A stretch of 64,000 bases of DNA, taken from positions 108,558 through 172,557 of the forward strand of contig BGKB01000148.1 of NCBI GenBank assembly GCA_003116975.1, written 5' to 3'. This stretch comes from Aurantiochytrium sp. KH105. Taxonomy: Eukaryota; Sar; Bigyra; Thraustochytrida; Thraustochytriidae. Below are positions 1 through 58,325 of the stretch, piece by piece (the first letter of the stretch is position 1; the number at the start of each line of letters is the position of its first letter). Under the pieces are notes generated by a model, which was given only the letters and a program-made list of their open reading frames with translations, ran no database searches and was not told the origin of the DNA. The position numbers and the translations under genes were made by a program.

Positions 1-3000
1 CTCCTTGACATTATCGCGCGTGACATCCATGTCTTCGCCACCGGGAACGAGAGGTACCGGCTCGCCGCTCATGCTGCGATGCCCTGGGGCTTCAAAGGTG
101 CACATAAAGACATCTACGAAGTCATCACCATCGTACTCGAGCATCTGACGCAGGCCGTCTGCGAGCGTCGGGTTGAGCTCCGCGAGATCCCGCAGACCTG
201 GTTTGGCGCGCACCTTACCAAGCAACGTTCGGTAAAAGGCAAGAGCAAAGTTCATGTCAATGATGGTGGCATTGTAGATGGCCAAGCCCAAGAGCTTGCC
301 GACCATACGGTAGGCATTCGGGTCCGTCGCCGCGGTCGACAGGGGGCTAAGGTTGAACCACAATTCGCCCGTGTCCCCCTCGCGGGAAAACATGCCGTAA
401 TCCTCGCTGAAAAGCTGCTCCGCAAGCAGCTGAAAGAACTCCTTCTTGACGCCGCCCGCGTCGACTCCGTCCTCTCCGCGGAATTTAACCATAAGCGGGC
501 GCTTGAGATCTGCCGCCTGCGCACGATCGAGCGCCCGCATCGTGTCCCGGATAAGATCACTTCGCGACACTTCGAGTACAAAGTACGGCACGCCTCCCAT
601 CAAGGGCAGGCCGGCCAGCTGGCCACGAAAAGCGTTCACGTTTGCAGCCATTTGCTCGCGATCCTCGATCATGAGGAGGAGCGTCTTGGTGTCCGGCGAG
701 AGCAAAAAACCGTACTCGAAAATGGTCCAGGCCGACTTTGCTTTGCCCTTGACCTTTCTGTCGCGCCAGCGCAAAAAGTAATTTTGAAGAAATTCGGCAG
801 GGTACGCCAGCAGGCTACGCGTATAAAAGGCCTCGACAGGAATGCCTTCCTGCATGATGGCGGGCGCCGCAACAATGGCAGCATTGGACGGTGCCGCGTT
901 GGCCACCGAGTCGGAAAGCAAGTTCCGGCGTTTGGCTTCGTTCTCGTGACGTACATTGTTCATGAGGTAAATACGGCGTGTCACGACGCAGAGTTGCTTG
1001 AGGCTGGCATCGGCGATCTTGCGTCGGCTCAAGTAGACACCGATTGAATCGACGAGGCGAGGCGTGACGAATTTTGCCAAAATGTCTCCAGGAACTTCCA
1101 TAAAAAGCCACTTGTGCAAAAGCTTTTCAAGCGAGGAGCGCGGCATGCTTTCCGTGGCAATAACGAGTCGCTCGTGCTCAAATTGAGCCAGCAAAGCCGT
1201 CGGGGACAGAAAGAGTAGCAGGTAAGGGCGGATCTGGTCCGGCTCCTGCGCCGAGGGGGCAAACTTTACAAGTGCACGCGTAACGGGTCGCAAAAGATTT
1301 TGCACCAGCCTGCGCGCTGGCTCGTATCCATCCTTTTCGTCGTTCTCGAGCTCAACAATTGCCTTGGTCGCAGCCAAAAGGCCGCGCACAACACCCTCGA
1401 CATCAAGTCCTGATCCTAGCGCTTTGTCGGCGCGACCAATCGCCTTGGAGGGGTTTAGCTTCCACGAAAGCGCAGAGGCGCGCGGGGTCGCCAGGTAGGC
1501 TGGCTTGCAGAAACTGCCGGCAAGCATGTATGGGTCCTGAAGGAGACGGCCCAAGAGTGAGAGGGTCTCGCTGAGATCCCCAGACTCGAGAGCGCTTGTC
1601 GCCGTGTTGTAAAGCTCTGTGCTCGAAATCCAAGCTGCCTCGTGCGTCCGCCCGCACAGGGACAGACGTACCTCGCGCGCGATGCTCGCGGCGGCAGCTG
1701 GTGCCGCGATGACCACTACGCGGTCAGGGAGTGCGGCGAGCTCGTATGCCGAGGCATGACGATCCGTCAGTGTGATCGTGAAGGGGCTTTCTTCGCCGGG
1801 TGTCCAGGTGAGGATCTCGCCGCTGGCGGCCAAGAAGGTAGTGACGCCAGCCGCGCCTCCGACCATTTGAGCGACTTCAATCTCGTTTGCCTGAAAGTAC
1901 GACATGGCCTCCGAATTGGTGGGTCGACCGGCGCCGCACCAAAGAAGAGCGCCAGGGCGACCCATGAGTACAGTGTGCGCATCGCCGCACGCCAAGAGGT
2001 CGACCGCAAAGGGCACGGGCATTCGAGTTGGTTCCGAAGCCGTCATGATGGTGTTGGCAAACCCGAGTTGGCCCTTGTCGTTGCGTCCGCATCCGTAGAC
2101 GCGACCTGACACAGTCAATGCAACCCAATGGTGTGCTCCGGCCGCGATAGCTTTGACAGGTACATTCTTGAGCGCCTTTCCAGCGAGATACAGGACCGTA
2201 GGGTCCTTGCGGCGCGAAACAAAGACTCGACCCGATACGCCAAGTGCTACGAGGACCTCGGAGGTGCATGCAATCTGAACAACGGGCTCGTCCAGTGGAA
2301 CTGAGACGGATTTTGCAGCGGGATCGTTCGAAGCCACTACAAACACGCGTCCTTCGGTGTCAAGCAGCGCCACGTACGTGGAGGCGCAGGCGACCTGAAT
2401 CACGTACGCGTCTACCTGGACGGGAACTTCTGCAGGGAGGGCGACAAAGGCGTGACCGTCGCGCGTTGCGTAAGCAACGAGCGCGTCGCGGCCGCTCATA
2501 GAGACAATGCTTTCGTTTTCTGCTGCTTGGGGCTCGATCCACGGGCTGGCGCGCATCTCCAGTCCCTGGAAGGAGAACATGGTGCCAGCGACGTCAGGGT
2601 ACGATGTCAGCGGGGAAGGCCCGAGGGACATCCATTGTGGCTTTGTGGGTGTTCCTCGTAGCGATCGCAGCGAGGCGCGCAAGCTTTTGCGCTTCGAGCC
2701 GCCGCCGCCCGTGACGATGGACACGCTCTTTCCAAGGCTCGCGCGAACCCTTGAGAGAGAACCCCTTTTCCGCGTGGCCTCTGCGCCTGACGCGCGGCCT
2801 GCGCCGTCGACGCCGTCGACCTCTTCGTCTTCGAGGATCTCGTCGTCAAAGAGCGCGTCGTCCTCGGCGTCGAGCTCGGCGATGCCGGCGAGCTCGGTGT
2901 CCTCGTCATAGTCGTCCTCGTATGACAGCTCGCGCCGGACCTGCTCCTTGGCGGCGGCGGCCAGCACGCGCGCCTCGCTTGCGCGCCGTATCGAGTTCAT
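1..3000 (-). CDS. RCC1-repeat HECT E3 ubiquitin ligase (HERC4-like), 3' end cut by window edge
   Basis: An uninterrupted frame of exactly 1000 codons runs from the ATG at 3000 to base 1 with no stop, so the C-terminus lies outside the window. The N-terminal ~120 residues are acidic and low complexity. Residues ~160-410 hold RCC1-like propeller blades, the clearest being VALTVSGRVYGCGRNDKGQL. A helical linker follows (~410-740) of the kind seen between RCC1 and HECT in small HERC proteins. From ~800 the HECT N-lobe is clear: RPLMVKFRGEDGVDAGGVKKEF, then FSREGDTGELWFNLSP and YRMVGKLLGLAIYN. The family accepts ubiquitin from an E2 on a C-lobe cysteine and passes it to substrates. That cysteine would lie ~150-200 residues beyond the edge. 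It is divergent from the GTPase gene at 4520. Family assignment is firm; the exact orthologue is inferred. Confidence 0.9.
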   Translation of the reverse strand, partial: MNSIRRASEARVLAAAAKEQVRRELSYEDDYDEDTELAGIAELDAEDDALFDDEILEDEEVDGVDGAGRASGAEATRKRGSLSRVRASLGKSVSIVTGGGGSKRKSLRASLRSLRGTPTKPQWMSLGPSPLTSYPDVAGTMFSFQGLEMRASPWIEPQAAENESIVSMSGRDALVAYATRDGHAFVALPAEVPVQVDAYVIQVACASTYVALLDTEGRVFVVASNDPAAKSVSVPLDEPVVQIACTSEVLVALGVSGRVFVSRRKDPTVLYLAGKALKNVPVKAIAAGAHHWVALTVSGRVYGCGRNDKGQLGFANTIMTASEPTRMPVPFAVDLLACGDAHTVLMGRPGALLWCGAGRPTNSEAMSYFQANEIEVAQMVGGAAGVTTFLAASGEILTWTPGEESPFTITLTDRHASAYELAALPDRVVVIAAPAAAASIAREVRLSLCGRTHEAAWISSTELYNTATSALESGDLSETLSLLGRLLQDPYMLAGSFCKPAYLATPRASALSWKLNPSKAIGRADKALGSGLDVEGVVRGLLAATKAIVELENDEKDGYEPARRLVQNLLRPVTRALVKFAPSAQEPDQIRPYLLLFLSPTALLAQFEHERLVIATESMPRSSLEKLLHKWLFMEVPGDILAKFVTPRLVDSIGVYLSRRKIADASLKQLCVVTRRIYLMNNVRHENEAKRRNLLSDSVANAAPSNAAIVAAPAIMQEGIPVEAFYTRSLLAYPAEFLQNYFLRWRDRKVKGKAKSAWTIFEYGFLLSPDTKTLLLMIEDREQMAANVNAFRGQLAGLPLMGGVPYFVLEVSRSDLIRDTMRALDRAQAADLKRPLMVKFRGEDGVDAGGVKKEFFQLLAEQLFSEDYGMFSREGDTGELWFNLSPLSTAATDPNAYRMVGKLLGLAIYNATIIDMNFALAFYRTLLGKVRAKPGLRDLAELNPTLADGLRQMLEYDGDDFVDVFMCTFEAPGHRSMSGEPVPLVPGGEDMDVTRDNVKE

Positions 3001-4519: not shown

Positions 4520-7500
4520 ATGGCATCCATCCTGGAGAACTCGGAGGAGGTGCTGACGAGGATGCAGACGAACGAACGCGTGGTCAATTTCCTTGGAAAT
4601 GACGACAAGAGACGCGTGTCCATGTTTACCGGAGGCCGCATCGGCGCCTCGCGTCTGAGCAACGGGCGCGCAGCAGAAGGCGTCCTCCGTGTGGATCAGA
4701 CCGGGCTCGTCCTGGTGCGCTTTGCATCGAAACGCTTTTCCTCGTTCCGGTCGAAGCGGCAGTCCGCCAAGGTCGAAACTCTCTGCAAGGTGGAGGACAT
4801 TGTCGACGCACGTCTTAGCCCCGACGCGCAGGAAAAGCGCGAAGGCAAGTGGCAGCTGAGCGCAGAGGCGCAAGATGGTCGCGTCACCGTCTACAATTTC
4901 GAAAGCCCCAATGTTTTCGAGGCCGTCGGGTGGATGCAAAGCATTCGCAGTCTGCGCGGACTCAAGGAACGGCCCGTGACCGCCGTGATTGGCGAAACGG
5001 GCGTTGGCAAGTCCCTTCTGGCTTCCAAACTTGCTGGGCTTGACCGCGAGAATTCCGTCTTTCGCGTCGACGACACGCCAGAGAGCGTCACCGTTGTCAC
5101 CGACATGTACCTCACGCATTGGCTCGGCAAGGACGAGGACCAAGAGATCGTCCTTGTGGATACGCCCGGCCTCTTGGACTCGGAAGGCCGTGACGCAGAA
5201 CACGCTACAGAAATGTTGGCCAAGCTCGCCCAACTCGGCTGGGTCCACACCTTTGCGATTGTACTCAACGCGCAGGACACCCGTCTCAAGGGCCCACTCA
5301 CCCAGATGCTCACAACGCTCGAGAAGAGCTATGGCAAGCAATTCTGGGCGCATGCCTGCATTGTCTTCTCGCACTGGTTCATGGACCCCGCGTCGGTGCG
5401 TCGTCGCAAGGACAAGGATGAAGACTTTATGTCTCGCCGCTGGAACGACGAGCTTGCGCGAAGGTTCCCCTTCATCATGGAGCTGCGTTCCGTTGATAAG
5501 CGCCTGCCCTGCTTCTTTGTCGACTCGGACGCTGCAGAGGGCGAGGAGTCCAAGCTTTTGAGTGCTGAGCTCCGTCGCTTCGCCGAAATCGCATCGCAAA
5601 ACCTCCCTCTCGACTGTCGCAAGGTGCTTCCCGACGTCCAGGCGGCCATGCTCGGTGCCAGCGTCCCGGCCGACGCCCTCGAACTCGCGCAACACCTGCG
5701 CGAGCTCGATCTCGTTGAGCGGCTGCCACGTCTCATCGAAAACGACATTTTCACGGTCGAGGCCCTTGGCCGTCTGCGAAACCGTACGCTTCGTGACTTG
5801 CTTGGATGGTCCTCCCAGGAAATCAACACGCTGCGTAGCGCCGCGGACGTGGTAAGCACCGAGAACCCGGAGCACGTTCTTGTTCGCGACTTCGAGGCTC
5901 TCGGACTTCCTACGGAAGCGATTCTTGGATCTGGTCTCACCTCAACGGAGCTCCTTGCCATGGAGGACAAGGAGGTTATGCGCGTCTGTGGCTTCAAGGT
6001 CGAGCAGATGCAGCTGTACGATGAATACCGTGAGACGGTCCTCCGTAACCAACGCGTGACAGCAGACCTCCTCTGGGAAGGTGCCATTGTGACGCGCAAT
6101 ACTACGGGCTGGGCCTACGGTGACGACAGTCGCCCCCAAGACTTTCTCGCCCCAGGTATGATCATCAACTGGCGTGACCTCGATGGTGAGGCGCATGGCG
6201 TGCTCGATCCTCCTGCTGGCTATGCAGGCCACCCGCGCACCTACGAGGCGCCCGCGCACCCGGGCTGGGCGCGTGTCTACTGGTTCGGCTCGGGTTACAC
6301 GAATACGTACCGCATTGGTGCCGACGAGGTGCACGAGCTCAAGTTCGAAAAGACTTCCGAGGCCGGCATCGAGTATGCTGATCCGGACGACCTCGACGGC
6401 ATTGTTTTTGCCCCTCTTGATTCCACGCCTCAGCGCGTAACGCATCGGGACCTGCGCTGCACCTTTTCCTTCCCCAAGGGCCAGCGTTACGGGCACTGGG
6501 CCAAGTTCGATGTCCGTCCCGCAATTTGCAAGGCCGTGGGCGGTATTGAGCCTGGTCAGATTGTCCGTCTGCCCAATACGTCGATTGAGGCCATTTGCAT
6601 CGGCGTTGGTATTGAGGAGGAAGGCAATATCAAACTCTGGTTTCGAGTGCTTAGTGACGGAGGCTCCGTCGGCGCTGGTCTCTTCCCAGACCAGGCCCTC
6701 CCCGCGCTCGAAGTCTTTGACTCGGGCACTGTCGAGGAAGCTGGACATGAGGATTGGGAATGCCATTCCGATGATGGCATCGAAAACGATGAGCTCGACT
6801 ATGTTACGACAAACATCCAGGAAGACTTCAAGTACGTCACGGGTGTTCGCTACCGCGAGTACGCTACCTTTGATATTCGCGACGAAATGCTCGACCGCTT
6901 CAACTTTAGACTTGATGGCCATCCGCTTCATCATGGGGACGTCATCAAGCATAAATCCTCGGGTGCCGTCTTTACGACTGTGGGCGTGAGCACGCACCAA
7001 TCGGAGCGAGCCCGTTTCTGGCTCCACAATGGCCAGAATCCTGGCGCCAGCGTGTGGACCTTTCTTCACAATGACATCAACCAGTTCGAACGCACCGGCG
7101 AGAAACGTTCGCTCGAGCAGATTGAGCCGCCGCGCAATATGTTTACGCCCCCGTCTGAGGACGAGCGCCGCCGCATCAACCTTGAGCCCACCTTTGAGTT
7201 CCCTCGTGGCACAGGTTTCCAAACCACCATGGCTACGTTTGACGTTACCGAGGCCACGGTACGCAGTTTGTGCGGACAGCCCCCCGGTGCGGTCTTCATG
7301 GGACCTGACGGTCGTCGCATCACGGTTATTGGCGCCAGCCCTATCCCCGAGACGGGCGTCCCGGACGTCTGGTACCACATGGACGGCTCTCGCGGCGCGG
7401 GTCTCATTCCCGAGTTTGCACGACTCGTTACGGGTCAGTTGTTTTCGGACACGGGCGAGATTCGCGATCTCGAGGAGCTTCGTGAGGAGCTCGGCAGTAT

Positions 7501-7765
7501 GCCTGCGCCCATGAACCCGCTGCAGGCCTTGTTGCAAATGCTTGAGCGCGCCGCTGACGGTGAGACCCGCGATGGGGCTTCCGACCAAGCCGAGGAGGCC
7601 GAAGTCGCCCCGAGTCCCTCCGCCCCGTCAACGGGCCAAGCGCGGCAGGGGCAAGCGGCTTCGGGGGACGCTCAAGCCCCGGCCTCTGGTGACGCTGGTG
7701 ACGACGATGATGACGAGTTCATCAGTTACTTGCGTGGTGAAGATAGCGACGATGAGGACAACTAA
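4520..7765 (+). CDS. Large multidomain AIG1/Toc-type GTPase with PH-like, SAM-like, MIB/HERC2-like and triple C-terminal repeats
   Basis: 1081 aa from the first ATG (MASILENSEEV). Residues ~15-125 look like a PH domain ending in the typical tryptophan helix (FEAVGWMQSIRSL). Residues 158-165 are a P-loop (GETGVGKS), 214-217 are DTPG, and IVFSHW resembles the G4 region of AIG1/Toc GTPases. Two SAM-like helical modules follow (~385-450 and ~455-515). Residues ~515-620 resemble a MIB/HERC2 domain, ending in YWFGSGYTNTYRIGADEVHEL. Three ~110-residue repeats then start near residues 645, 768 and 890, sharing F.FP.G, A.FD, IGVG-like and GAG(L) motifs. The tail is acidic (DDDDDEFISYLRGEDSDDEDN). GTP binding is well supported. 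The cellular role is unknown; the layout suggests a membrane- or scaffold-attached GTPase with protein-interaction modules. Confidence 0.85.
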   Translation: MASILENSEEVLTRMQTNERVVNFLGNDDKRRVSMFTGGRIGASRLSNGRAAEGVLRVDQTGLVLVRFASKRFSSFRSKRQSAKVETLCKVEDIVDARLSPDAQEKREGKWQLSAEAQDGRVTVYNFESPNVFEAVGWMQSIRSLRGLKERPVTAVIGETGVGKSLLASKLAGLDRENSVFRVDDTPESVTVVTDMYLTHWLGKDEDQEIVLVDTPGLLDSEGRDAEHATEMLAKLAQLGWVHTFAIVLNAQDTRLKGPLTQMLTTLEKSYGKQFWAHACIVFSHWFMDPASVRRRKDKDEDFMSRRWNDELARRFPFIMELRSVDKRLPCFFVDSDAAEGEESKLLSAELRRFAEIASQNLPLDCRKVLPDVQAAMLGASVPADALELAQHLRELDLVERLPRLIENDIFTVEALGRLRNRTLRDLLGWSSQEINTLRSAADVVSTENPEHVLVRDFEALGLPTEAILGSGLTSTELLAMEDKEVMRVCGFKVEQMQLYDEYRETVLRNQRVTADLLWEGAIVTRNTTGWAYGDDSRPQDFLAPGMIINWRDLDGEAHGVLDPPAGYAGHPRTYEAPAHPGWARVYWFGSGYTNTYRIGADEVHELKFEKTSEAGIEYADPDDLDGIVFAPLDSTPQRVTHRDLRCTFSFPKGQRYGHWAKFDVRPAICKAVGGIEPGQIVRLPNTSIEAICIGVGIEEEGNIKLWFRVLSDGGSVGAGLFPDQALPALEVFDSGTVEEAGHEDWECHSDDGIENDELDYVTTNIQEDFKYVTGVRYREYATFDIRDEMLDRFNFRLDGHPLHHGDVIKHKSSGAVFTTVGVSTHQSERARFWLHNGQNPGASVWTFLHNDINQFERTGEKRSLEQIEPPRNMFTPPSEDERRRINLEPTFEFPRGTGFQTTMATFDVTEATVRSLCGQPPGAVFMGPDGRRITVIGASPIPETGVPDVWYHMDGSRGAGLIPEFARLVTGQLFSDTGEIRDLEELREELGSMPAPMNPLQALLQMLERAADGETRDGASDQAEEAEVAPSPSAPSTGQARQGQAASGDAQAPASGDAGDDDDDEFISYLRGEDSDDEDN

Positions 7766-18518: not shown

Positions 18519-19285
18519 CGTGCTGTTCGTGCCAAGAAGACGAGAGCCCCTGCTCCCGCTCCGCTCCGGCCGAGACCTCGTCGAGTTGCGGCACCACTGG
18601 TCGACTCCGCGCGCGGGCCTCGTCCGGCCCATCGCTTGTCTCGAACCCACGCTACGCGCGACGCGACGGTTTCTGGGGCGAAGCGCTCTTCGATAAGAGT
18701 CCAGCTTGAAATATCACCCTTCCTACTTGCCTACTTTCTTTTCTTTCTTGCAATGATTGAAGAGACCGTCTTGAGCTCAAGCACGCATTCCAGCCTCGCT
18801 GCTTGTCTCTCCTCCTGGCAAGAACTTCCTGCTGTCCTTGTTCATCTACTACTACTTCGGCCTACTGCATCTCCGTCGAGATTAATCAGCTGACGGACAG
18901 AACGTGAACGGATTTCTAAAGGGGGTATAATAGGAAAGTTACTTCAATAGCGGCACTGATGAAATCGCATTACTTTGGACGAAAAGTATGCTTTGACTCG
19001 TAATCAAACCCCTTGCGAAACGCGAAATGTGGCAAGGGTCAGGTCTTGCAGAACCAGAATTTGGCAAAAAGAGAGCAAGAAGGTGTCGGTGAGCAAAGGC
19101 AGACAAACACATACTCACACTCAGCTCGAAGGCGCAGCCCTTCGCTGCGCTGCGCAGCTGCGCAAACGCTGAAAAGGAGCGAGAAAGAAGGTGCCGCCGC
19201 GTCATACTTGTCGTAGATCAGAACTCGATCGTTAGGCAATCGCACACGCGCTATTCATGCTCACGGCCTTACAGGGCCGAACATC
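18519..19285. other. Divergent promoter region
   Basis: 767 bp between the disordered-protein gene and the WD40/EF-hand gene. It is GC-rich near 18520-18680 and mixed afterwards, with a short aca/cac run at 19100-19125. No gene or strong motif seen. Confidence 0.4.
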
Positions 19286-22200
19286 ATGGAGGAGCTCGCA
19301 AACCTTCCAGCGGAGGAGCTGGAAAACTTACGGCAAAAGTTCTTGTCGCATGGCGATGAAGGACTTAACTTGGAGCAGTTTGTTAAAATTATCCTCGAAA
19401 CGCTTGGGCACTCGAGAAACAACGCAGGTCCTGACTTGAGCACTGCCGATGACCGCGAACTCGTCTCGTCCATGTGTGAGACCTTTGAGGAAATCGATCG
19501 CAATGGAAACGGGAATGTAGAATGGGCAGAGCTGACATCATTTTGGGTCGACAAGGGCTTCGTGGCAACTCGCAGACTCGTCGAACCTCTGCGCTTCCGT
19601 TTTCGGGAGGACATGCAGTACAAGGATCGCTACAGCCGTGGATCAAAGATCAACAAGCTCGTATTTCTCGACACCATCCAAAAGATTGCAAGCTTTGAAA
19701 AAGAGAGCATGAAGCTCAAGATTTACGACACGCAATTGCGACTTTGCGGCGAGGCAGACGTTGGGCACGCAATCCACAAGTATCGCCCTTCATATCGTCG
19801 TAAAGACGAGCTGCGGGACTGCTTGGTCGTTCCGAGGCGCAATATACTCATCATTCTGTCTTCTGATTTGAGTTTGACGTTTTGGGACGCCAATAATTTG
19901 CGTTTCAACCACTTTGCCTTTGCCAAATCACCACAAACATGCATTGCTTACTCTCCCGAAACTAACAAGGTGTATACTGCCGGCAGCAGCAACCGCATCC
20001 ACGTGTGGTTTCCTGAAAAGGGACAACGCACAGAGAGTATCGTCACCCGGCACAAAGAGGCCATCACAGATATCCTGGTCGTGGGCAGTCTTGTCGTGAC
20101 CTGCTCTCTCGACAAAACGATCCAAACGCACGACATCACCACCGGACGACATCGGGCCACCCTTCGAGGACACAAACTCAGTATCAAACATATGGTGTAT
20201 TCCAAACGCCAAGGTACGCTCTTGTCCGCCGGGCTGGAGACTGACGTCCTCGGCTGGGATCTCGTGTCGCAAAAGCTCGTTGTCCGTTTGAGCGGTCACC
20301 GCACTTCCGTTATTGGAGTTCACCTTTTGCCCAACAATGATCCTACCAAAACAGACCGTGCCATCACAGCCGACAACATGGGCAACTTTCGCATTTGGGA
20401 CTTTCAACGCTCGCATACCGGGCAGGCCGTCTGCCTGCAGGTTTTCCAGCGCAAAATCCGCAATTTTCACGGCAAGTCCAAGGACCGAGGCGCACGAGAC
20501 GGCCAAAAACCCTTGTTACCTGGCCAGCAGCGTTGGACGCTCGATGACTTCCATCCCAATACCTTTTGCGTGACCAATCCAGGTGCAGACATCATTGCGG
20601 CCACATCCAAGATGTGTCGATTCACCTCATCTGGGCACAAGAACATGAACAATATGCCTTCTGGTGCCATCTTTAATTCCGTATCTCTCACCTTTATCAC
20701 AGCCATGGGCAAAGATGTTCAGCTTTGGGATGGACGCACTGGCCAGGTCGAGCAGGATATGTTCAGCCTGGCTAAGACAGAGCTCACATCTCTCCTTCTC
20801 GATGATCGAGAGCGCAAATTTATTGTCGGTCACGCTGCAGGGCATGTCTTAGTGCACAGCTATCTTAATGGCGTGAAAATGAAGAAGACGGAGATCAGTC
20901 ATGCTGCCGATGTTACGGGCATTGCCTATGTTGGTGCGGAGAAGCTCATCATCAGTGTCGCACGGGACCGATCAATCATGGTCCATGACGAATGGCCAGA
21001 AGATGAGTGCGCTCCCTTTTTGCGAGGCATTTCGTGCGCTCATCACGCAGACATTACTTGCGTTGCGTACTCGGAGCCCTTTTCGCTGATCGCTAGCGGA
21101 TCCGCTGACGCAACCGTGACGCTTTGGAATTTCGAGTTTCTCAAGGCAGAGACTCTACTGTATGGTCACTCTGCCGATATCGTGGCTGTCTCGTTTGTCG
21201 GTTCATTTCCTATTCTTGTATCTGCCGATGCAAATGGCATCGTTCTCGTTTCGCTCATTCATCCCTCGTCTGCCAAAGGTCGCTGTCTCCAGCGTTTCGA
21301 GAACTGGAACGACATTGAAAAGTTCGGCAGCGGATACTACTATGACGGCAAGCCGGAATCCAAATGCCAGCGGACAGCCATCACGGCACTCGCGGTGCAT
21401 GAAGAGATCTCCACGGGGCGTTGGCTCTTGGTTCTCGGGGACGAGATGGGAGTTGTGAAAACTCTTGATCTTTCGGTCCTCATTCAAGAGCACGGCCTTC
21501 AAAAGCGGGATCCGGAAACCTACCCTCTGCATCGCACTGGTTACAATGCACGCCGCAGACTGCGCCGAGACAGTGGCTTTGTGATGGACAAGCAAGTCCA
21601 AATGCAACAGGAGCACGCGCGAAGCGAGGTTGCAGCGGCAAGTTCAGCGCCTGAAAAGTTGCCTCTCTTGGCAGCGATCAAGGCGCACCATGGCGCGATC
21701 AGCTCGATCCAAGTCATTGATGCGCCTCTTTCTGTCCTCACCTCGTCTTTGGACCGTTCTGTGAGAATCCACAACATTCTCTCGGGTGAGCTCTTGGGCA
21801 TCCTCAACATGAGCGATGAGGAGAAGGAAGCCATTTCAACGGGAGAGACGCCTGCACAGCCCTGGCTCTTCGATGTCGAGCCGACCGAGCGTCGACTTGA
21901 GGGCCACAGACACAAGAAGGCGGCCGTCGTTCTTGAGCAAATTGAGGCCATGCGGCATGCAGAAATTGCAAGGAGTCTTGCAGCGGACGCCTATGATCTT
22001 CGGCAAAGAAAGATTGCGCGCGCGCGTGCTCGCCTCTCAATCAACCAGGCTCAGGAACTTGAGTTGGACATACAGCAAGGGAAAACAACATCTTGTCTTT
22101 CTTTTGACCAGGACCCTCAAGAAAATGCCATGGCGAAAAAACGCGCGGACAAGGACAAGCTCCTCGAGCAGCTTCTTACCAAGGACGCTCAAGCCTCCGG

Positions 22201-23749
22201 CGGCGTGCGGGCTACCCCGAGCACGTACACACGATTTGCCCAAGAGCAGCAGCGCAACAAACTTCAAAGCCGGATTCCGAAAAAGGCAAATATCGAAGCG
22301 TCGAGCTTTTTGCGCAAAGAACTTGGATTTGGTTCCAATACACGTTTGCGCGACCGCAAACAGCGCAAGCTTGACTCGCTCTCGCACTTTCGACGAAAGT
22401 TTGCAACCAAGGGGCTTCTGGAGGACAAGTTGACGATGAGCTCATGGCTCAATCCGGCCGTGGTGGAGGCAGAGGCTGACGAGATGCAGCGTCCGAGCAC
22501 TGCACCGGAACAGACGCCGCAGCCTTTGGACATCGCGCAACTTTGGGGCAGATCAAACGCAAATTTTGTGGACGCGATCGATAACATGCTCGTCCTGGGT
22601 CAGCCTTCGCCGCGCCAGCTCTCACCATTGAATCAAGAGAGTGGCTCGGCATCCCCGGAGCGGAGACGCAGACCAAGCACGGCAGGTAATAACGCCGCGC
22701 TCGACGCTCCAAGCGCCTCGGACCAAACGTGGAGACGCCGGAGCACGGCTGTGAGACAACGCTTCGAGCTTGCTGCCGCTGCCGACGTTGATTTGCAGCG
22801 ACCACGTACCTCGCCGGCGTCTGGTATTTCTTCCCGATCACTTTTCTCTCAGGAGTCTTCGGTGACGACGCCCTCGCACGCATTGCACCCGCCAGACACT
22901 GGATCGAGCAGTCCCTCAGCGACCCAGCACAATCGCCGACGGCGACGCTCACTCATCCAGCGACAAGCCGACTTTGCCCAGGTATCGGAAGAGAGCAAAC
23001 TGCGTCGCATGTCCTCGAGCCTCCGCATGGAATCGCGACGTAGTTTGCCTGGATGCAGCCCAGGTGGCGTGCGTTTTGGGCCGTATCATGAATCGCATGT
23101 GCGGGGCTTTTATGATCTTTTCAAGGAGCTTGATCCCGATCAGAGTGGCTTCATTGACATGCAAGAGTTTTACACCAACGTGAAGCTACGCGAGTCGCCA
23201 ATTGCGGCCTCGCTTGGGAGCATCTTCGAGACAATGGACGAAGACGATAACGCCACTGTAGACCTGGTGGAATTCTTGCAATGTTTCTTGCCTCTCGTGC
23301 AGCACTCGGAAATTGTCGCCATGGTACGGTACTTTGAGCGCAGCGCAGAGAAAAAGGCGAGCAGTTTCAAGCAGGCGCGCAAGGTAACGCAGCTCTCCGA
23401 GGAGGCTGAGCGCGAAATCGACGAGCTTTTCAATCAACTCGATGAGAATAATGACAACTCCATCCAGTTGAGTGAGCTTCGCCACGTCGCTCTTGCAAAC
23501 AATTTCATCAAAGAAGAGGATGTACGTGAGATTGCGCAGCGGTATTCTTCATTAGAAGATGCTTCCTTGTCCAAAGAGGATTTTAAGGAGCTTTGTAGCG
23601 AGTACTTTTCCTACAATTCGGACAAGCTCATTCGCGAAGTTCTTTCCTTTAATCAAAAAAACAAAAAGAGAGATGGTCTCCGCGCACGCCTGTCCAGTGT
23701 AGAGAGCACTACACTTTCCCCACCAGAGACAGAAGATGATTGCGAATAA
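19286..23749 (+). CDS. EF-hand / WD40-repeat protein (WDR49/WDR64/WDY-like), probable flagellar protein
   Basis: 1487 aa, ATG at 19286. An N-terminal EF-hand loop is canonical (DRNGNGNVEWAE, residues 71-82). From ~160 to ~830 there are many WD40 units, for example TDILVVGSLVVTCSLDKTIQ, LIASGSADATVTLWNFEF and SSIQVIDAPLSVLTSSLDRS, enough for two propellers. A charged, disordered region follows (~860-1260, with RRRRS-type basic patches). Three further EF-hand-like loops close the protein: DPDQSGFIDMQE (~1281), DEDDNATVDLVE (~1318) and DENNDNSIQLSE (~1386). The EF-hand then WD40 order is known from WDR49, WDR64 and fly WDY, which are linked to cilia or sperm. The extra C-terminal EF-hands make this version larger. 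A Ca2+-regulated axonemal role is inferred. Confidence 0.85.
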   Translation: MEELANLPAEELENLRQKFLSHGDEGLNLEQFVKIILETLGHSRNNAGPDLSTADDRELVSSMCETFEEIDRNGNGNVEWAELTSFWVDKGFVATRRLVEPLRFRFREDMQYKDRYSRGSKINKLVFLDTIQKIASFEKESMKLKIYDTQLRLCGEADVGHAIHKYRPSYRRKDELRDCLVVPRRNILIILSSDLSLTFWDANNLRFNHFAFAKSPQTCIAYSPETNKVYTAGSSNRIHVWFPEKGQRTESIVTRHKEAITDILVVGSLVVTCSLDKTIQTHDITTGRHRATLRGHKLSIKHMVYSKRQGTLLSAGLETDVLGWDLVSQKLVVRLSGHRTSVIGVHLLPNNDPTKTDRAITADNMGNFRIWDFQRSHTGQAVCLQVFQRKIRNFHGKSKDRGARDGQKPLLPGQQRWTLDDFHPNTFCVTNPGADIIAATSKMCRFTSSGHKNMNNMPSGAIFNSVSLTFITAMGKDVQLWDGRTGQVEQDMFSLAKTELTSLLLDDRERKFIVGHAAGHVLVHSYLNGVKMKKTEISHAADVTGIAYVGAEKLIISVARDRSIMVHDEWPEDECAPFLRGISCAHHADITCVAYSEPFSLIASGSADATVTLWNFEFLKAETLLYGHSADIVAVSFVGSFPILVSADANGIVLVSLIHPSSAKGRCLQRFENWNDIEKFGSGYYYDGKPESKCQRTAITALAVHEEISTGRWLLVLGDEMGVVKTLDLSVLIQEHGLQKRDPETYPLHRTGYNARRRLRRDSGFVMDKQVQMQQEHARSEVAAASSAPEKLPLLAAIKAHHGAISSIQVIDAPLSVLTSSLDRSVRIHNILSGELLGILNMSDEEKEAISTGETPAQPWLFDVEPTERRLEGHRHKKAAVVLEQIEAMRHAEIARSLAADAYDLRQRKIARARARLSINQAQELELDIQQGKTTSCLSFDQDPQENAMAKKRADKDKLLEQLLTKDAQASGGVRATPSTYTRFAQEQQRNKLQSRIPKKANIEASSFLRKELGFGSNTRLRDRKQRKLDSLSHFRRKFATKGLLEDKLTMSSWLNPAVVEAEADEMQRPSTAPEQTPQPLDIAQLWGRSNANFVDAIDNMLVLGQPSPRQLSPLNQESGSASPERRRRPSTAGNNAALDAPSASDQTWRRRSTAVRQRFELAAAADVDLQRPRTSPASGISSRSLFSQESSVTTPSHALHPPDTGSSSPSATQHNRRRRRSLIQRQADFAQVSEESKLRRMSSSLRMESRRSLPGCSPGGVRFGPYHESHVRGFYDLFKELDPDQSGFIDMQEFYTNVKLRESPIAASLGSIFETMDEDDNATVDLVEFLQCFLPLVQHSEIVAMVRYFERSAEKKASSFKQARKVTQLSEEAEREIDELFNQLDENNDNSIQLSELRHVALANNFIKEEDVREIAQRYSSLEDASLSKEDFKELCSEYFSYNSDKLIREVLSFNQKNKKRDGLRARLSSVESTTLSPPETEDDCE

Positions 23750-37888: not shown

Positions 37889-40492
37889 TTACTCTTCATG
37901 ACACTCGTCCTGACCGTCATCGCGCGATGACATCAACGCTACATGCAGACCTCGTAGGTCCCCCTCGTCCACGTCGTCGCTAATGCAGCTGCCGCTACTA
38001 CGACGCACTCTTTCGTTGTCGAGCTCGTATGGGTCGTGATCGTCGAGGAATGGACGAAGCGGTGCAGCTTCTGAGGATGCCATATGAAAGTACAAAGCTA
38101 CGAAAACAACAATCGTCTGCACTGAAAGATACAAGGATTTGACGAGGGAAAACAGCTTGGATGGTACGACATGAACATGAAAGGCATAGCGTACAACGGC
38201 TAGAGCCAAAATAGCGGGCACACCAAAAAGACACCACATCCACACGCCCGCGGCGAGGGCCGCTGGAAGAATGCGGTCATATCGACGTGCGGGACCAAGG
38301 GAAAAGAGAATTGGATCCTCGCAACACCGCGCCAAAGGTTGATGACGATCAGGATGACGCAGGGCTGGCCAATAAACTGTAGGGAAAAGACCCGATTGCA
38401 CCGCGTACTTGGCTTCGCGCAGCGTGCCGAGACTTGACAGGAAAGCGTTGATGAAAGCGTCTGGAGCGATGGAAATGAGAGCGTAGCGCCCACCAGGCTT
38501 TAAGGGAGCAAAGACGCCGATCTCGGTCATGCCCCGCGTGAAGAACAGCTCAAAGAACATGTTGATGACAAATCCCACGACAAAGGTAACGAGGATACCC
38601 GTACGAAGATGTGGATGACGGAGCGCGCGGGCGCGGTCGATCCATGTGTTGATGTAGTGCTCGGTCGTGTCGCCGGCTTCGAGCATGAGCGCCTGATACA
38701 GACCGCTGCGACGTTTGCGCAGCTCGAGGCGGTTCGAGCGCTCAATGTGTACAAAACCCATCGCGAGACCCACAAGAATCGCGAAAGCGCCGCAGAAAAA
38801 CGCTGCAAAGTGAACAAATTCAACCGCGTCCTTGGCACGGTCACACGTCGCGAACATACTTTGATGCGCTCGTGACATTTTCTCTTGGAATTCGGCCTTG
38901 AAGATGGGCAAAAAGGTCGGTTGCACATGGCCCAACAGGTCGGCATCCGGCAAGGGAGTCACGTGCGCATTAAATTGGAGACGCTGCACGAAGCGAATGG
39001 GAATGCCCGTATAAGCATGTAAAAAGCTGTCCACCATGGCATCGTGCGCAGGGTCAGGATGTGGAAGGCCATCGACGGCCTGACGCAATTTTGGGTCACA
39101 CTGGAAAAAATTTGGCGGCGAGACAAACATTGGAAATCCCTCTGCAAGACGGGAATAGTTGAACAAACCACTTGGACCGTTCATGGCATACGCAATATTG
39201 CGTGGAATCTGGCTCGAGTTTCGAAGCGCGTCTCGCGACAGACGGTACTGCACGGTACCGATGCCGTCGATCTCGGCGCTTTCTCCGCTCTCGAGACTCA
39301 TTTGCGTTTTGAAAACTTTCATCCACACTTGAAGCGGCTTGCCGCGCGCAATATCTTCTGGTAAAAAGTATGCGGCGTCTGATCCGCCAACCTCATTGGC
39401 CCATCGCGCATCCCACAAGGGCTTGCACAGTCTTGCTCCATCTTCTCTGCTCTTTCCACATGCTATTGCATGATCGCTGCCTTCGTACGAGACGAGGTTA
39501 CGCATGAGCTGAGGAATGTACTTGCCCGTATGAAGCGCATATGTCTCTGCATAGGCTTCAATGTCCTCGTTGGTGGTCATGTTTGGCAAAAGGCCAGGAA
39601 AATTCTTCTTCTTGTCCAAAGAAACAACAAAGGACATGGCACCCATGTCTTGGTCAAGTCCTTGCGAGTGCAGCAAATCGAGCGCATTGCGCGAAGAAAA
39701 GAGACGATCGTCCTGGTAACCGAAAATAAGGTCGTCTACCGTGCGATTGACAATCATGCGCTCCGAGCTAGCGCCTCGATAGGCCAACTCCATGGCGCTC
39801 GGTCGCATGATCGCTGGGAGCTTGCGCACAAAGCTATAGTATGCGAAAAGCATCGGAAAGTTGAGCACATTGACATAGGTGTGTTCGGCAGCCGAGACAG
39901 AGAGTTCTGGAACGGCTACATAGGTCTGTTTCGAGCGGTATGCAACAACCTCACCGTCCTGCATCCACGTAAGGTTTTGGTTTTCGACAAGCGTTCGATA
40001 TACGAATGGCCCAATCGTGGTAAGAACGGGCTGCGCCCCGTGCAGAGCAACGTCGCGCGGATTAGCGATGCTGTGCACGTGCACCTTGAGCAAAATGGCG
40101 TCCTCACTTCGTACATTGCTTCTGAAGTCGGCAATGCCGGACGCCGAGGGATTGTCAAGCATGAGTGAATTGCGTATTTCGAGTCTAAGAAGTCGGTCAA
40201 AGACGATGGGCAGCGAGACTGCGAGAAGAAAAAGTGCCAGCGCGCAAACGATTGCAGCACCCGCGCAACACCGAACAGATCCGCACTGCCGTAGCGAGAA
40301 TTTGCGTCGCACCGGTCTCCACTCAACGGGTCCTTCTGGGATTCCGCTCGTCGCACTGGACCCTGACCCGTGGCATGACGGGCATCGCGGCAGTCCTCCT
40401 GCTGCGCTTCCTGCTGTCGTCGACGACGGCGCGTCGGCAAGGCTCACCCGGTCCTCGCTCGCCGGCGGGCTCTGGGTTCCGTCGAGGCCCAT
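37889..40492 (-). CDS. CD36/SCARB/LIMP-2 family protein with extra C-terminal membrane helices
   Basis: 867 aa from the ATG at 40492 (MGLDGTQSPPASEDRVSLAD). A Cys-rich N-tail precedes helix 1 (AAIVCALALFLLAVSLPIVF). The large lumenal/extracellular part has CD36 landmarks: SIANPRDVALHG, TIGPFVYR, NRTVDDLIFGYQD, PEDIARGKPLQVWMKVFKTQ and VDGLPHPDPAHDAMVD followed by TGIPIRFVQRLQFNAHV. The usual closing helix is FFCGAFAILVGLAMGFVHIE. Unlike CD36 (~470-530 aa, two helices), about 260 more residues follow, with at least three further helices (ILVTFVVGFVINMFFELFFT, LAAGVWMWCLFGVPAILALA, YLSVQTIVVFVALYFHM). The family binds lipids, lipoproteins or particles at the surface or lysosome. Several NxS/T sites are present. 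The extension is unusual. Confidence 0.87.
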   Translation of the reverse strand: MGLDGTQSPPASEDRVSLADAPSSTTAGSAAGGLPRCPSCHGSGSSATSGIPEGPVEWRPVRRKFSLRQCGSVRCCAGAAIVCALALFLLAVSLPIVFDRLLRLEIRNSLMLDNPSASGIADFRSNVRSEDAILLKVHVHSIANPRDVALHGAQPVLTTIGPFVYRTLVENQNLTWMQDGEVVAYRSKQTYVAVPELSVSAAEHTYVNVLNFPMLFAYYSFVRKLPAIMRPSAMELAYRGASSERMIVNRTVDDLIFGYQDDRLFSSRNALDLLHSQGLDQDMGAMSFVVSLDKKKNFPGLLPNMTTNEDIEAYAETYALHTGKYIPQLMRNLVSYEGSDHAIACGKSREDGARLCKPLWDARWANEVGGSDAAYFLPEDIARGKPLQVWMKVFKTQMSLESGESAEIDGIGTVQYRLSRDALRNSSQIPRNIAYAMNGPSGLFNYSRLAEGFPMFVSPPNFFQCDPKLRQAVDGLPHPDPAHDAMVDSFLHAYTGIPIRFVQRLQFNAHVTPLPDADLLGHVQPTFLPIFKAEFQEKMSRAHQSMFATCDRAKDAVEFVHFAAFFCGAFAILVGLAMGFVHIERSNRLELRKRRSGLYQALMLEAGDTTEHYINTWIDRARALRHPHLRTGILVTFVVGFVINMFFELFFTRGMTEIGVFAPLKPGGRYALISIAPDAFINAFLSSLGTLREAKYAVQSGLFPTVYWPALRHPDRHQPLARCCEDPILFSLGPARRYDRILPAALAAGVWMWCLFGVPAILALAVVRYAFHVHVVPSKLFSLVKSLYLSVQTIVVFVALYFHMASSEAAPLRPFLDDHDPYELDNERVRRSSGSCISDDVDEGDLRGLHVALMSSRDDGQDECHEE

Positions 40493-41032
40493 GGTGAGTG
40501 ACGCCGCCTCCCGTGCCTCTTCTATCCTTGCCTTTCCTTGCTGCGCCGTCGCGGGCACGCCGGGCTCTCTCCCTCTCTTTCTCACGCGCCCGCCCGGGCG
40601 AGCGGCCTGCGGCGTGCCGTTGTCTTGCTCGCGCCCGCCTCGTCCCCGTCGCAGATTTGCGTCTGCTAGGGCTGTTCTCTCTCATGCATGGCAAGCGTCC
40701 ATGGCAAGGCATTATTCTGCGTCGTGATCGAGTCTGCGATCGAGCCGCCTAGGAAATGGCTCGGAATTGGAACCTAATAACGAAGGGCCAAGCTGAGCAA
40801 GGCCTGCTTCGCACGGGCAGAGAAATTCGTTCTGTAGCTGATAGGAGTTGCACTCTTTCCCATGGAAAGGTTGGTTGCCCTTGGGTATATTAGTGTGTGC
40901 AACCCGTGGTGACGTCGAGCCCCTGAGCGTCATGAGATATAATGACAAATTTTGTTATTTAGTTTTGCGCAAAGCATCGGTCAATATTTGCGCATACGCG
41001 GTTGACCCGCGCAAGGGGCAAGAAGGGAGGTT
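40493..41032. other. Intergenic, 5' flank of CD36-like gene and 3' flank of ankyrin-like gene
   Basis: 540 bp between two minus-strand genes. GC-rich near 40500-40660, mixed and more AT-rich beyond 40900. Checked for a tRNA-like fold around 40760-40920 and none is convincing. Confidence 0.4.
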
Positions 41033-57732: not shown

Positions 57733-58030
57733 GCTCGATTGATCATCTGCCACCTTGCCTTCAGCTGGCTGGTCAGATGACCTCGTAGCGCAACTGTTCA
57801 CCACTGGTCGCCAGCCAGCCAGCAGCAGCAGCCAGCAGCAGCAGTAGCAGCAGGTTCTCGCTGTCTTCAAGACAACTAAAACAAATAGGCAAGGCAACCC
57901 CGTTTCGAAAAAAAACAACTTGAACCCGAAGGTGACAAGTAGAGCAAGAAAACTTCGCTGTTCTTCTACCGGCCGCGACGCAGAGCGCGCTCGCTGCGCG
58001 CCCTCGCCGCGGCAGACCCGACCCAGCTGA

Positions 58031-58062
<32 letters not shown>

Positions 58063-58063
58063 G
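58031..58063. repeat. (CCTG)n tetranucleotide repeat
   Basis: Eight tandem copies of cctg, upstream of the ribonucleotide reductase start. Confidence 0.95.
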
Positions 58064-58093
58064 GACGCGCCACGCGCCGCGCCGCGACGAGAC

Positions 58094-58120
58094 TCGCCTC
58101 GCCTCGCCTCGCCTCGCCTT
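58094..58120. repeat. (CGCCT)n pentanucleotide repeat
   Basis: Five tandem copies of cgcct, about 200 bp before the reductase ATG. Confidence 0.9.
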
Positions 58121-58325
58121 GCCTCTCGCCGGCCCGACTCCCGCTCGCCGGGGACGAGGGCGCGGGCGCAGACGCCGAGCTAACGACCGGCGAATCCATC
58201 CCTCTCTCCCTCCTCGGATCCTTGGGCGAGAGCGCCTCGAGACACGGCGGAGCAAAGCACCAAGCAAAGCGCCTACTCTCTCGTGGCGGCGGCTCGCGGC
58301 AGAGGAGCGAGCGAGCGGGAGCGCG

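What the first reader, a model, noticed from the sequence alone, without database searches (positions are those of the whole stretch)
4520..7765. AIG1-type GTPase fused to PH-like, SAM-like, MIB/HERC2-like and repeat modules
The sequence shows a P-loop GTPase (GETGVGKS, DTPG) with an N-terminal PH-like domain and a long C-terminal chain of interaction modules. AIG1/GIMAP and Toc GTPases are normally short or membrane-anchored. I know of no described protein with this order. It has the build of a signalling or immune-type switch: lipid sensing, GTP switch, oligomerisation, ligand binding.
Basis: partly seen in the sequence, partly recalled or inferred. Interest (0 to 1): 0.75.

Follow-up and report, generated by a model that had tools for sequence, protein, structure and literature searches.

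The report
Multi-domain AIG1 GTPase beside ubiquitin ligase
This gene encodes a large GTP-switch protein related to immune and chloroplast-import GTPases, built into an unusual chain of interaction modules; it belongs to a small gene family whose members mostly sit beside a gene for a ubiquitin ligase, which suggests a testable partnership.

Summary
ORF 4520-7765 is real: 1081 aa, one open frame. Its G domain passes Pfam's AIG1 cut-off. SAM-like and MIB/HERC2-like modules score under Pfam cut-offs but recur in paralogues; three C-terminal repeats are confirmed by profile comparison; the PH-like call is weakest. That this is one protein is well supported: the assembly holds a 99% identical copy and five paralogues (41-42%), each an open frame with the same order. 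The window gene is under strong purifying selection (dN/dS 0.04 against the 99% copy). Arg255 aligns with the arginine-finger position of GIMAP7 and Toc33, so a dimerising switch is likely but untested. New here: 5 of 7 copies lie beside a HECT ubiquitin-ligase gene, in both lineages, in different orientation. I propose a split HERC2-like pair: a GTP-gated receptor serving an RCC1-HECT ligase. Among the five paralogues the repeats change faster (omega 0.42) than the G domain (0.06), and copy number probably differs between haplotypes, as reported for GIMAP immune families; immune function is not shown. Structure models were too poor to confirm PH, SAM or MIB folds. No eukaryote collection was on hand, so spread among protists is untested.

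The parts
4520..7765 (+). Coding sequence of the 1081-aa protein, single open frame, stop included
   Evidence: 99% identical copy and five paralogues with the same order
4673..4960 (+). PH-like module, residues about 52-147 (weakest call)
   Evidence: Pfam PH E 0.032, 15.2 bits, under cut-off 25.1; not hit in 3 of 3 paralogue N-termini; strands then a C-terminal helix in a low-confidence model
4967..5614 (+). AIG1-type G domain, residues about 150-365
   Evidence: Pfam AIG1 41.7 bits as a fragment, cut-off 27; Foldseek matches Toc34, GIMAP2, IRG proteins
5282..5284 (+). Codon of Arg255, aligned with an arginine of GIMAP7 and Toc33 at the finger position; invariant in 7 of 7 copies
   Evidence: alignments
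5669..5857 (+). SAM-like module 1, residues about 384-446
   Evidence: SAM_EPH E 0.036 in the fragment, 1.2e-5 to 4.1e-5 in 3 paralogues; five helices in both low-confidence models
5867..6055 (+). Possible SAM-like module 2, residues about 450-512
   Evidence: five predicted helices only; no SAM profile hit
6071..6349 (+). MIB/HERC2-like module, residues about 518-610
   Evidence: Pfam MIB_HERC2 E 7.6e-4 in the fragment, under cut-off; both PDB profile hits are HECTD1 MIB, E 0.0027 and 0.0037
6452..6694 (+). C-terminal repeat 1, residues about 645-725
   Evidence: profile-profile comparison; alignment A6
6803..7084 (+). C-terminal repeat 2, residues about 762-855
7181..7429 (+). C-terminal repeat 3, residues about 888-970
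   Evidence: strand-strand-helix-strand-strand-strand in the model
7547..7762 (+). Low-complexity tail ending in an acidic stretch; D1064, D1065, E1066 and L1071 invariant in 7 copies
1..3000 (-). Divergent neighbour: RCC1-like + HECT ubiquitin ligase; ATG taken at 3000, runs off the left edge (1161 aa in all)

Best explanation
It is a multi-domain AIG1-type (GIMAP/Toc-like) GTPase that acts as a GTP-gated receptor or scaffold, most likely for the RCC1-HECT ubiquitin ligase encoded next to it. Shown: one long open frame with an AIG1-type G domain, a SAM-like and a MIB-like module and three repeats; paralogues with the same order; a HECT gene beside 5 of the 7 copies. Inferred: the G domains pair face to face and Arg255 enters the partner's site; the SAM-like part builds larger assemblies; the MIB-like part and the repeats bind a target or the ligase, so that the GTP state decides when the target is offered for ubiquitination. 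My weights: AIG1-type multi-domain family 0.95, arginine-finger dimer switch 0.5, work with the HECT ligase 0.35.
For: AIG1 over cut-off in the window protein and in 3 of 3 paralogues scanned. Arg255 aligns with an arginine of the GIMAP7 and Toc33 chains (weak hits, E 0.074 and 0.17) and is invariant in 7 of 7 copies; R133A in pea Toc34 cuts dimer formation (passages of PMC12973003). HECT: 44 places in the assembly; 5 lie 432 to 4098 bp from one of the 7 family genes, covering both diverged lineages. Two of these five neighbours were scanned (window, C331): both have RCC1 and a HECT domain complete but for at most a position at each end; C32:272009 is 93% and the C32:236359 end 94-95% identical to C331's, C26's 90% to the window's. 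Window, C331 and C32 ligases keep a Cys in LPTASTCFN (that it is the catalytic Cys is recalled). Orientation is head-to-head in the window lineage and tail-to-tail in the other, so closeness outlived a rearrangement. A MIB hit and a HECT hit share what looks like one open frame on C13 and on C188 (same reported frame length, spacing divisible by three), a fusion of functions that are split here. The nearest solved MIB is that of a HECT ligase, HECTD1.
Against: Two of 7 copies (C27:333358, C32:263665) have no HECT gene found beside them. The tree of RCC1-HECT proteins is unresolved, and in the genome search the best non-allelic match of the window ligase is C37, not the paralogues' neighbours (224 against 212 bits), though full-length BLASTP ranks the latter first (264-265 against 244 bits). 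The third RCC1-HECT type, C105/C37, has no family gene on its contigs. Adjacency may be inherited from one ancestral pair and mean little. No expression or interaction data. G4 and G5 are unlike between the lineages (FSHW/VDSD against FTRW/VDND). MIB, SAM and PH scores are all under Pfam cut-offs.
Confidence: 0.4

Rival explanations
1. An immune-type intracellular receptor family: a conserved AIG1 switch, fast-changing C-terminal repeats that recognise pathogen or self molecules, copy number varying between haplotypes; the HECT neighbour is incidental.
For: Among the 5 paralogues omega is 0.06 in the G domain, 0.42 (bootstrap 0.33-0.52) in the repeats and 0.92 (0.50-2.14) in the linker before them. 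C27 holds 1 copy and C32 holds 3, near a stretch that is 95% identical between the two contigs. Lancelet GIMAPs show presence-absence variation (passages of PMC12373286).
Against: No region has a pooled omega clearly over 1 (one pair's tail reaches 2.01 on 18 changes). The share of synonymous differences is also lower in the G domain than in the repeats (0.090 against 0.218), so gene conversion may explain part of the contrast. The window gene shows no such pattern: 1 nonsynonymous against 20 synonymous changes in the repeats.
Confidence: 0.2
2. A housekeeping scaffold of membranes or cytoskeleton, septin- or Toc-like in action: the N-terminus tethers it, G and SAM-like parts polymerise, the repeats bind structural partners. 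The HECT linkage is ancestry only.
For: Septins, Toc and AIG1/GIMAP share arginine fingers (passage of PMC11238149). Strong constraint on the window gene, omega 0.04. The only suggested solved relative of the repeat is mS48, which spans the small mitoribosome subunit from lower body to head (passage of PMC8998825).
Against: No transmembrane segment: best 19-residue hydropathy 1.16 in the window copy, 1.57 in any of 7. No lipid-binding motif was tested. A copy-variable gene group is unexpected for a housekeeping scaffold, although the window gene itself is not in that group.
Confidence: 0.25
3. The PH-like and SAM-like calls are over-read: the protein is an AIG1 GTPase with lineage-specific linkers and repeats, whose N-terminus and second helical set are neither PH nor SAM.
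For: PH hits only the window copy, E 0.032. Profile searches of the PH and SAM regions against PDB give nothing under E 0.1. Models have mean pLDDT 35.8 and 42.0.
Against: SAM_EPH ranks third by E-value in L003 (4.1e-5) and second in L006 and L007. Strands followed by a C-terminal helix are predicted for 54-145. SASH3 SAM is among the SAM-profile hits, but second to a lysozyme entry and at E 0.87.
Confidence: 0.15

Closest known systems
AIG1/GIMAP and Toc34/Toc33 GTPases
   Same: AIG1 G domain over the Pfam cut-off; an arginine aligned to the finger position; Foldseek matches to Toc34 and GIMAP2
   Different: 1081 aa with PH-like, SAM-like, MIB-like and repeat modules; no membrane anchor
Multi-domain AIG1 proteins of Biomphalaria and lancelets
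   Same: AIG1 joined to other signalling modules; family expansion and copy variation (passages)
   Different: Partners named in the passages seen are death/CARD, kinase, ARM, HINT, coiled coil; no MIB, SAM or this repeat there
HERC2 and HECTD1 ubiquitin ligases
   Same: MIB-like module, nearest solved MIB is HECTD1's; RCC1 and HECT in the adjacent gene. HERC2's own make-up is recalled
   Different: Here the MIB-like part and the RCC1-HECT part are in two proteins, and the MIB-like part is joined to a GTPase
ROCO (LRR-ROC-COR) proteins of brown algae
   Same: A GTPase switch with a diversifying binding region, proposed as an immune receptor (passages of PMC11378527)
   Different: Other GTPase class and other repeats; exon shuffling there, a single open frame here

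Membership tests
AIG1/GIMAP/Toc GTPases | Score over the curated Pfam AIG1 cut-off | tested here: met
   37.4 bits whole protein, 41.7 fragment, cut-off 27; 35.2-38 bits in 3 of 3 paralogues scanned
AIG1/GIMAP/Toc GTPases | G1, switch and G3 motifs | tested here: met
   GETGVGKS, SVT and DTPG invariant in 7 of 7 copies
AIG1/GIMAP/Toc GTPases | Arginine at the finger position | tested here: met
   Arg255 aligned to R in GIMAP7 and Toc33 chains (weak hits); invariant in 7 of 7. Its role is inferred; 'conserved box' as a name is recalled
AIG1/GIMAP/Toc GTPases | G4 and G5 motifs of the family | tested here: inconclusive
   FSHW/VDSD in the window lineage, FTRW/VDND in the paralogues; the GIMAP consensus for comparison is recalled
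AIG1/GIMAP/Toc GTPases | Structure ranks nearest to GIMAP/Toc | tested here: inconclusive
AIG1/GIMAP/Toc GTPases | Nucleotide-dependent dimerisation and GTPase activity | not testable with these tools
   needs protein
Toc34-type membrane receptor | C-terminal transmembrane anchor | tested here: not met
   Best 19-residue hydropathy 1.57 in any of 7 copies, and that window is in the G domain
MIB/HERC2 domain | Score over Pfam cut-off 33.5 | tested here: not met
   13.6 bits whole, 19.8 fragment, 23.0 in the L003 fragment; hence 'MIB-like'
MIB/HERC2 domain | Best sequence relatives among solved structures are MIB domains | tested here: met
   2 of 2 profile hits at E up to 10 are HECTD1 MIB, E 0.0027 and 0.0037; by single sequence 2 of 8, the rest a terpene synthase at E 0.8-9.7
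SAM domain | Score over Pfam cut-off (SAM_EPH 27) | tested here: not met
   14.2 bits in the window fragment, 23.7-25.4 in 3 paralogues; hence 'SAM-like'
SAM domain | Five-helix fold | tested here: inconclusive
   Five helices predicted at 384-445, low pLDDT
PH domain | Score over Pfam cut-off 25.1 | tested here: not met
   15.2 bits in the window fragment; 0 of 3 paralogue N-termini hit
GIMAP immune proteins | Induction or function in defence | not testable with these tools
   no expression data
HERC2-type ligase | RCC1, MIB and HECT in one polypeptide | tested here: not met
   MIB-like and RCC1-HECT parts are in two adjacent genes here

The most novel reading that the evidence does not exclude
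A split, GTP-gated HERC2-like ubiquitin ligase: an AIG1 GTPase that has taken up a MIB-like module and lineage-specific sensing repeats works as the switchable receptor subunit of an RCC1-HECT ligase encoded next door, and the pair has been duplicated and diversified in its sensing repeats, as an intracellular recognition system of a single-celled eukaryote.
Probability: 0.2. Interest if true: 0.85.

Novelty: new variant of a known kind. Interest (0 to 1): 0.6.

Why it matters
AIG1/GIMAP GTPases are linked to defence in animals and plants, yet their molecular work is mostly unclear. A gene family in which the GTPase is built together with binding modules and sits beside a ubiquitin ligase gives a concrete idea, that such GTPases gate the offering of targets to ligases, which can be tested with two proteins. 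It also adds a repeat with no Pfam match whose only suggested solved relative is in a trypanosomatid mitoribosome protein.

Tried and rejected
Relatives elsewhere: none found. Viral contigs twice: no pattern match, then 41 stretches, none confirmed; genome contigs twice: 2 and 26 stretches, none confirmed; phages no match; plasmids 1 weak G-domain hit, E 0.3. These collections are of viruses, prokaryotes, phages and plasmids, so this says nothing about other protists. PADLOC, NCBIfam and PHROGs gave only weak hits to P-loop stretches.

Structure: single-sequence model pLDDT 35.8, seven-sequence model 42.0, pTM 0.30. That the repeats are degenerate MIB copies is not supported by profile comparison (E 0.17-0.2). 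SAM1 and SAM2 are not detectably alike (E 0.084). That the window ligase and the paralogues' ligases are sisters was not upheld: the tree is unresolved (6 of the 44 HECT places, the partial C32:236359 left out). The mS48 link weakened in part on retest: with 9 repeat sequences 4 of 4 hits were mS48 chains of three trypanosomatids, with 18 only the 7ane chain stayed, E 0.0019. A literature search for AIG1 with HECT gave 5 papers, none about such a pair by their titles and abstract starts.

Rows left out: one search was given 3 of the 4 SAM fragments printed 9 of the 12 repeat fragments; one search used 18 of the 21 repeat copies (the 99% copy left out).
Full report
What is there. Window 4520-7765 (+) is a single open frame of 1081 codons plus stop, ATG at 4520. 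It lies in contig C148 of a 76.0-Mb, 367-contig assembly. Several searches return loci in near-identical pairs on different contigs, so the assembly seems to hold two haplotypes; that is inference.

One protein, not two. A protein search of the assembly gave 7 places: the window gene, one on C26 that is 99% identical (taken as the allele), and five paralogues (C32 three times, C331, C27) at 41-42% identity in alignment A1, each one open frame of over 1000 codons that aligns from about residue 51 to 1020 or beyond. At that distance, a chance read-through of two neighbouring genes would hardly be kept in every copy. Between the window gene and C26 there are 65 synonymous and 10 nonsynonymous changes, dN/dS 0.04, so the frame is under purifying selection.

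The modules. The G domain is AIG1-type: over the Pfam cut-off in the window protein and in 3 of 3 paralogues scanned. In the genome 25 places ring for AIG1, 13 over the cut-off; 7 of these 13 are this family and 6 other proteins. SAM-like module 1 is found by SAM_EPH in the three paralogues (E 1.2e-5 to 4.1e-5), less well in the window copy (E 0.036 as a fragment; not listed whole). The MIB-like module is the only family found in its fragment, and the same place rings in 7 of 7 copies. The three C-terminal repeats match each other by profile comparison; a search with the window's repeat region found only these 7 genes in the assembly (7 of 7 places; single-sequence sensitivity). Their profile points to mS48 of trypanosomatid mitoribosomes: E 0.0058 with 9 sequences, 4 of 4 hits being mS48 chains; with 18 sequences E 0.0019 for one mS48 chain, the others no longer listed, and LolC at 0.59. 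That link is suggestive, not firm. The PH-like N-terminus is the weakest: E 0.032 in the window copy, none in 3 paralogue N-termini, no PH protein in PDB by profile. A search with the window's N-terminus found the 7 copies and one place at E 0.13.

The switch. Arg255 aligns with an arginine of the GIMAP7 and Toc33 chains (hits of E 0.074 and 0.17) and is invariant in 7 of 7 copies. That this is the finger in GIMAP7 is recalled. For Toc34, R133 is described as the finger and R133A cuts the dimer (passages of PMC12973003; that paper gives R133 for Arabidopsis Toc33 as well, whereas PDB 3def is titled R130A). Arginine fingers in Toc34/Toc159 and AIG1/GIMAP are noted in PMC11238149 (passage). G4 and G5 differ between the lineages: FSHW/VDSD in the window gene, FTRW/VDND in the paralogues.

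The neighbour. The divergent gene (ATG taken at 3000, minus strand, leaving the window at its left edge) encodes an RCC1-like + HECT protein of 1161 aa. A HECT search of the assembly gave 44 places. Five of the 7 family genes have one close by: C148 and C26 (4.1 kb from the HECT domain, head-to-head) and C331, C32:275311, C32:237805 (480, 432 and 493 bp, tail-to-tail). C32:263665 and C27:333358 have none found; downstream of the C27 copy lies repetitive DNA (50 matches listed). With 44 HECT places a randomly placed gene has one within 5 kb with a chance of about 0.008; both lineages by chance about 6.5e-5 if independent. Shared descent of an old pair would remove that independence, but the pair then stayed together through deep divergence and a change of orientation. 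The ligases of window and C331 and that of C105 all carry RCC1 and HECT. A tree of six HECT proteins leaves window, paralogue-side and C105 ligases unresolved; BLASTP bits favour the paralogue side slightly, the genome search slightly favours C37. C105/C37 have no family gene. On C13 and C188 a weak MIB hit and a HECT hit appear to share one open frame (4851 and 4843 aa), so a fused form of the two functions seems to exist in the same genome.

The paralogue group. Among the five paralogues pooled omega is 0.06 in the G domain, 0.18 and 0.16 in the SAM-like parts, 0.29 in MIB, 0.37 in the N-terminus with PH, 0.42 (0.33-0.52) in the repeats, 0.63 in the tail and 0.92 (0.50-2.14) in the linker before the repeats. 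None is clearly over 1, and synonymous differences are also fewer in the G domain (0.090 against 0.218), so gene conversion may contribute. C27:360000 matches C32:304666 at 95% in the same orientation, so these contigs look allelic there, with 1 gene on C27 and 3 on C32; the upstream flank of the C27 gene matches C32:278462 at 88%. But C27:300000 matches C56, not C32, and C331 is unplaced, so a copy-number difference between haplotypes is likely, not proven.

Verdict. The architecture is a new variant of multi-domain AIG1 proteins. The most useful new lead is the pairing with a ligase gene. Function remains inferred.

Noticed in passing
L030, L031, L032 (C106, C115, C96): A second AIG1-type family in the genome: BTB_2 (KCTD-like) domain joined to an AIG1 G domain in L030 and L032; L031 has the same sequence pattern but was not scanned.
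   Followed up: partly
L028, L034 (C11, C69): Further AIG1-like GTPases without a BTB hit; L034 scores under the AIG1 cut-off.
   Followed up: partly
window 6452-7429 and PDB 7ane mS48 residues 641-697: The C-terminal repeat resembles a stretch of the kinetoplastid mitoribosome protein mS48: possibly a wider protist beta-rich module without a Pfam family.
   Followed up: partly
G000 C13:610043-614725 and C188:30351-35045: Very long open frames (4851 and 4843 aa) with a weak MIB_HERC2 and a HECT hit, HERC2/HECTD1-like.
   Followed up: no
L007:1-1400 (C27:331858-333257): Repetitive DNA, 50 matches listed in the genome, downstream of the C27 copy where most other copies of that group have the HECT gene.
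   Followed up: no
window 57936-60590: Long frame matching B12-dependent ribonucleotide reductase models.
   Followed up: no
window 37889-40681 (-): CD36-family protein.
   Followed up: no
window 19217-23749: 1510-codon frame with WD40 propeller and EF-hand matches.
   Followed up: no
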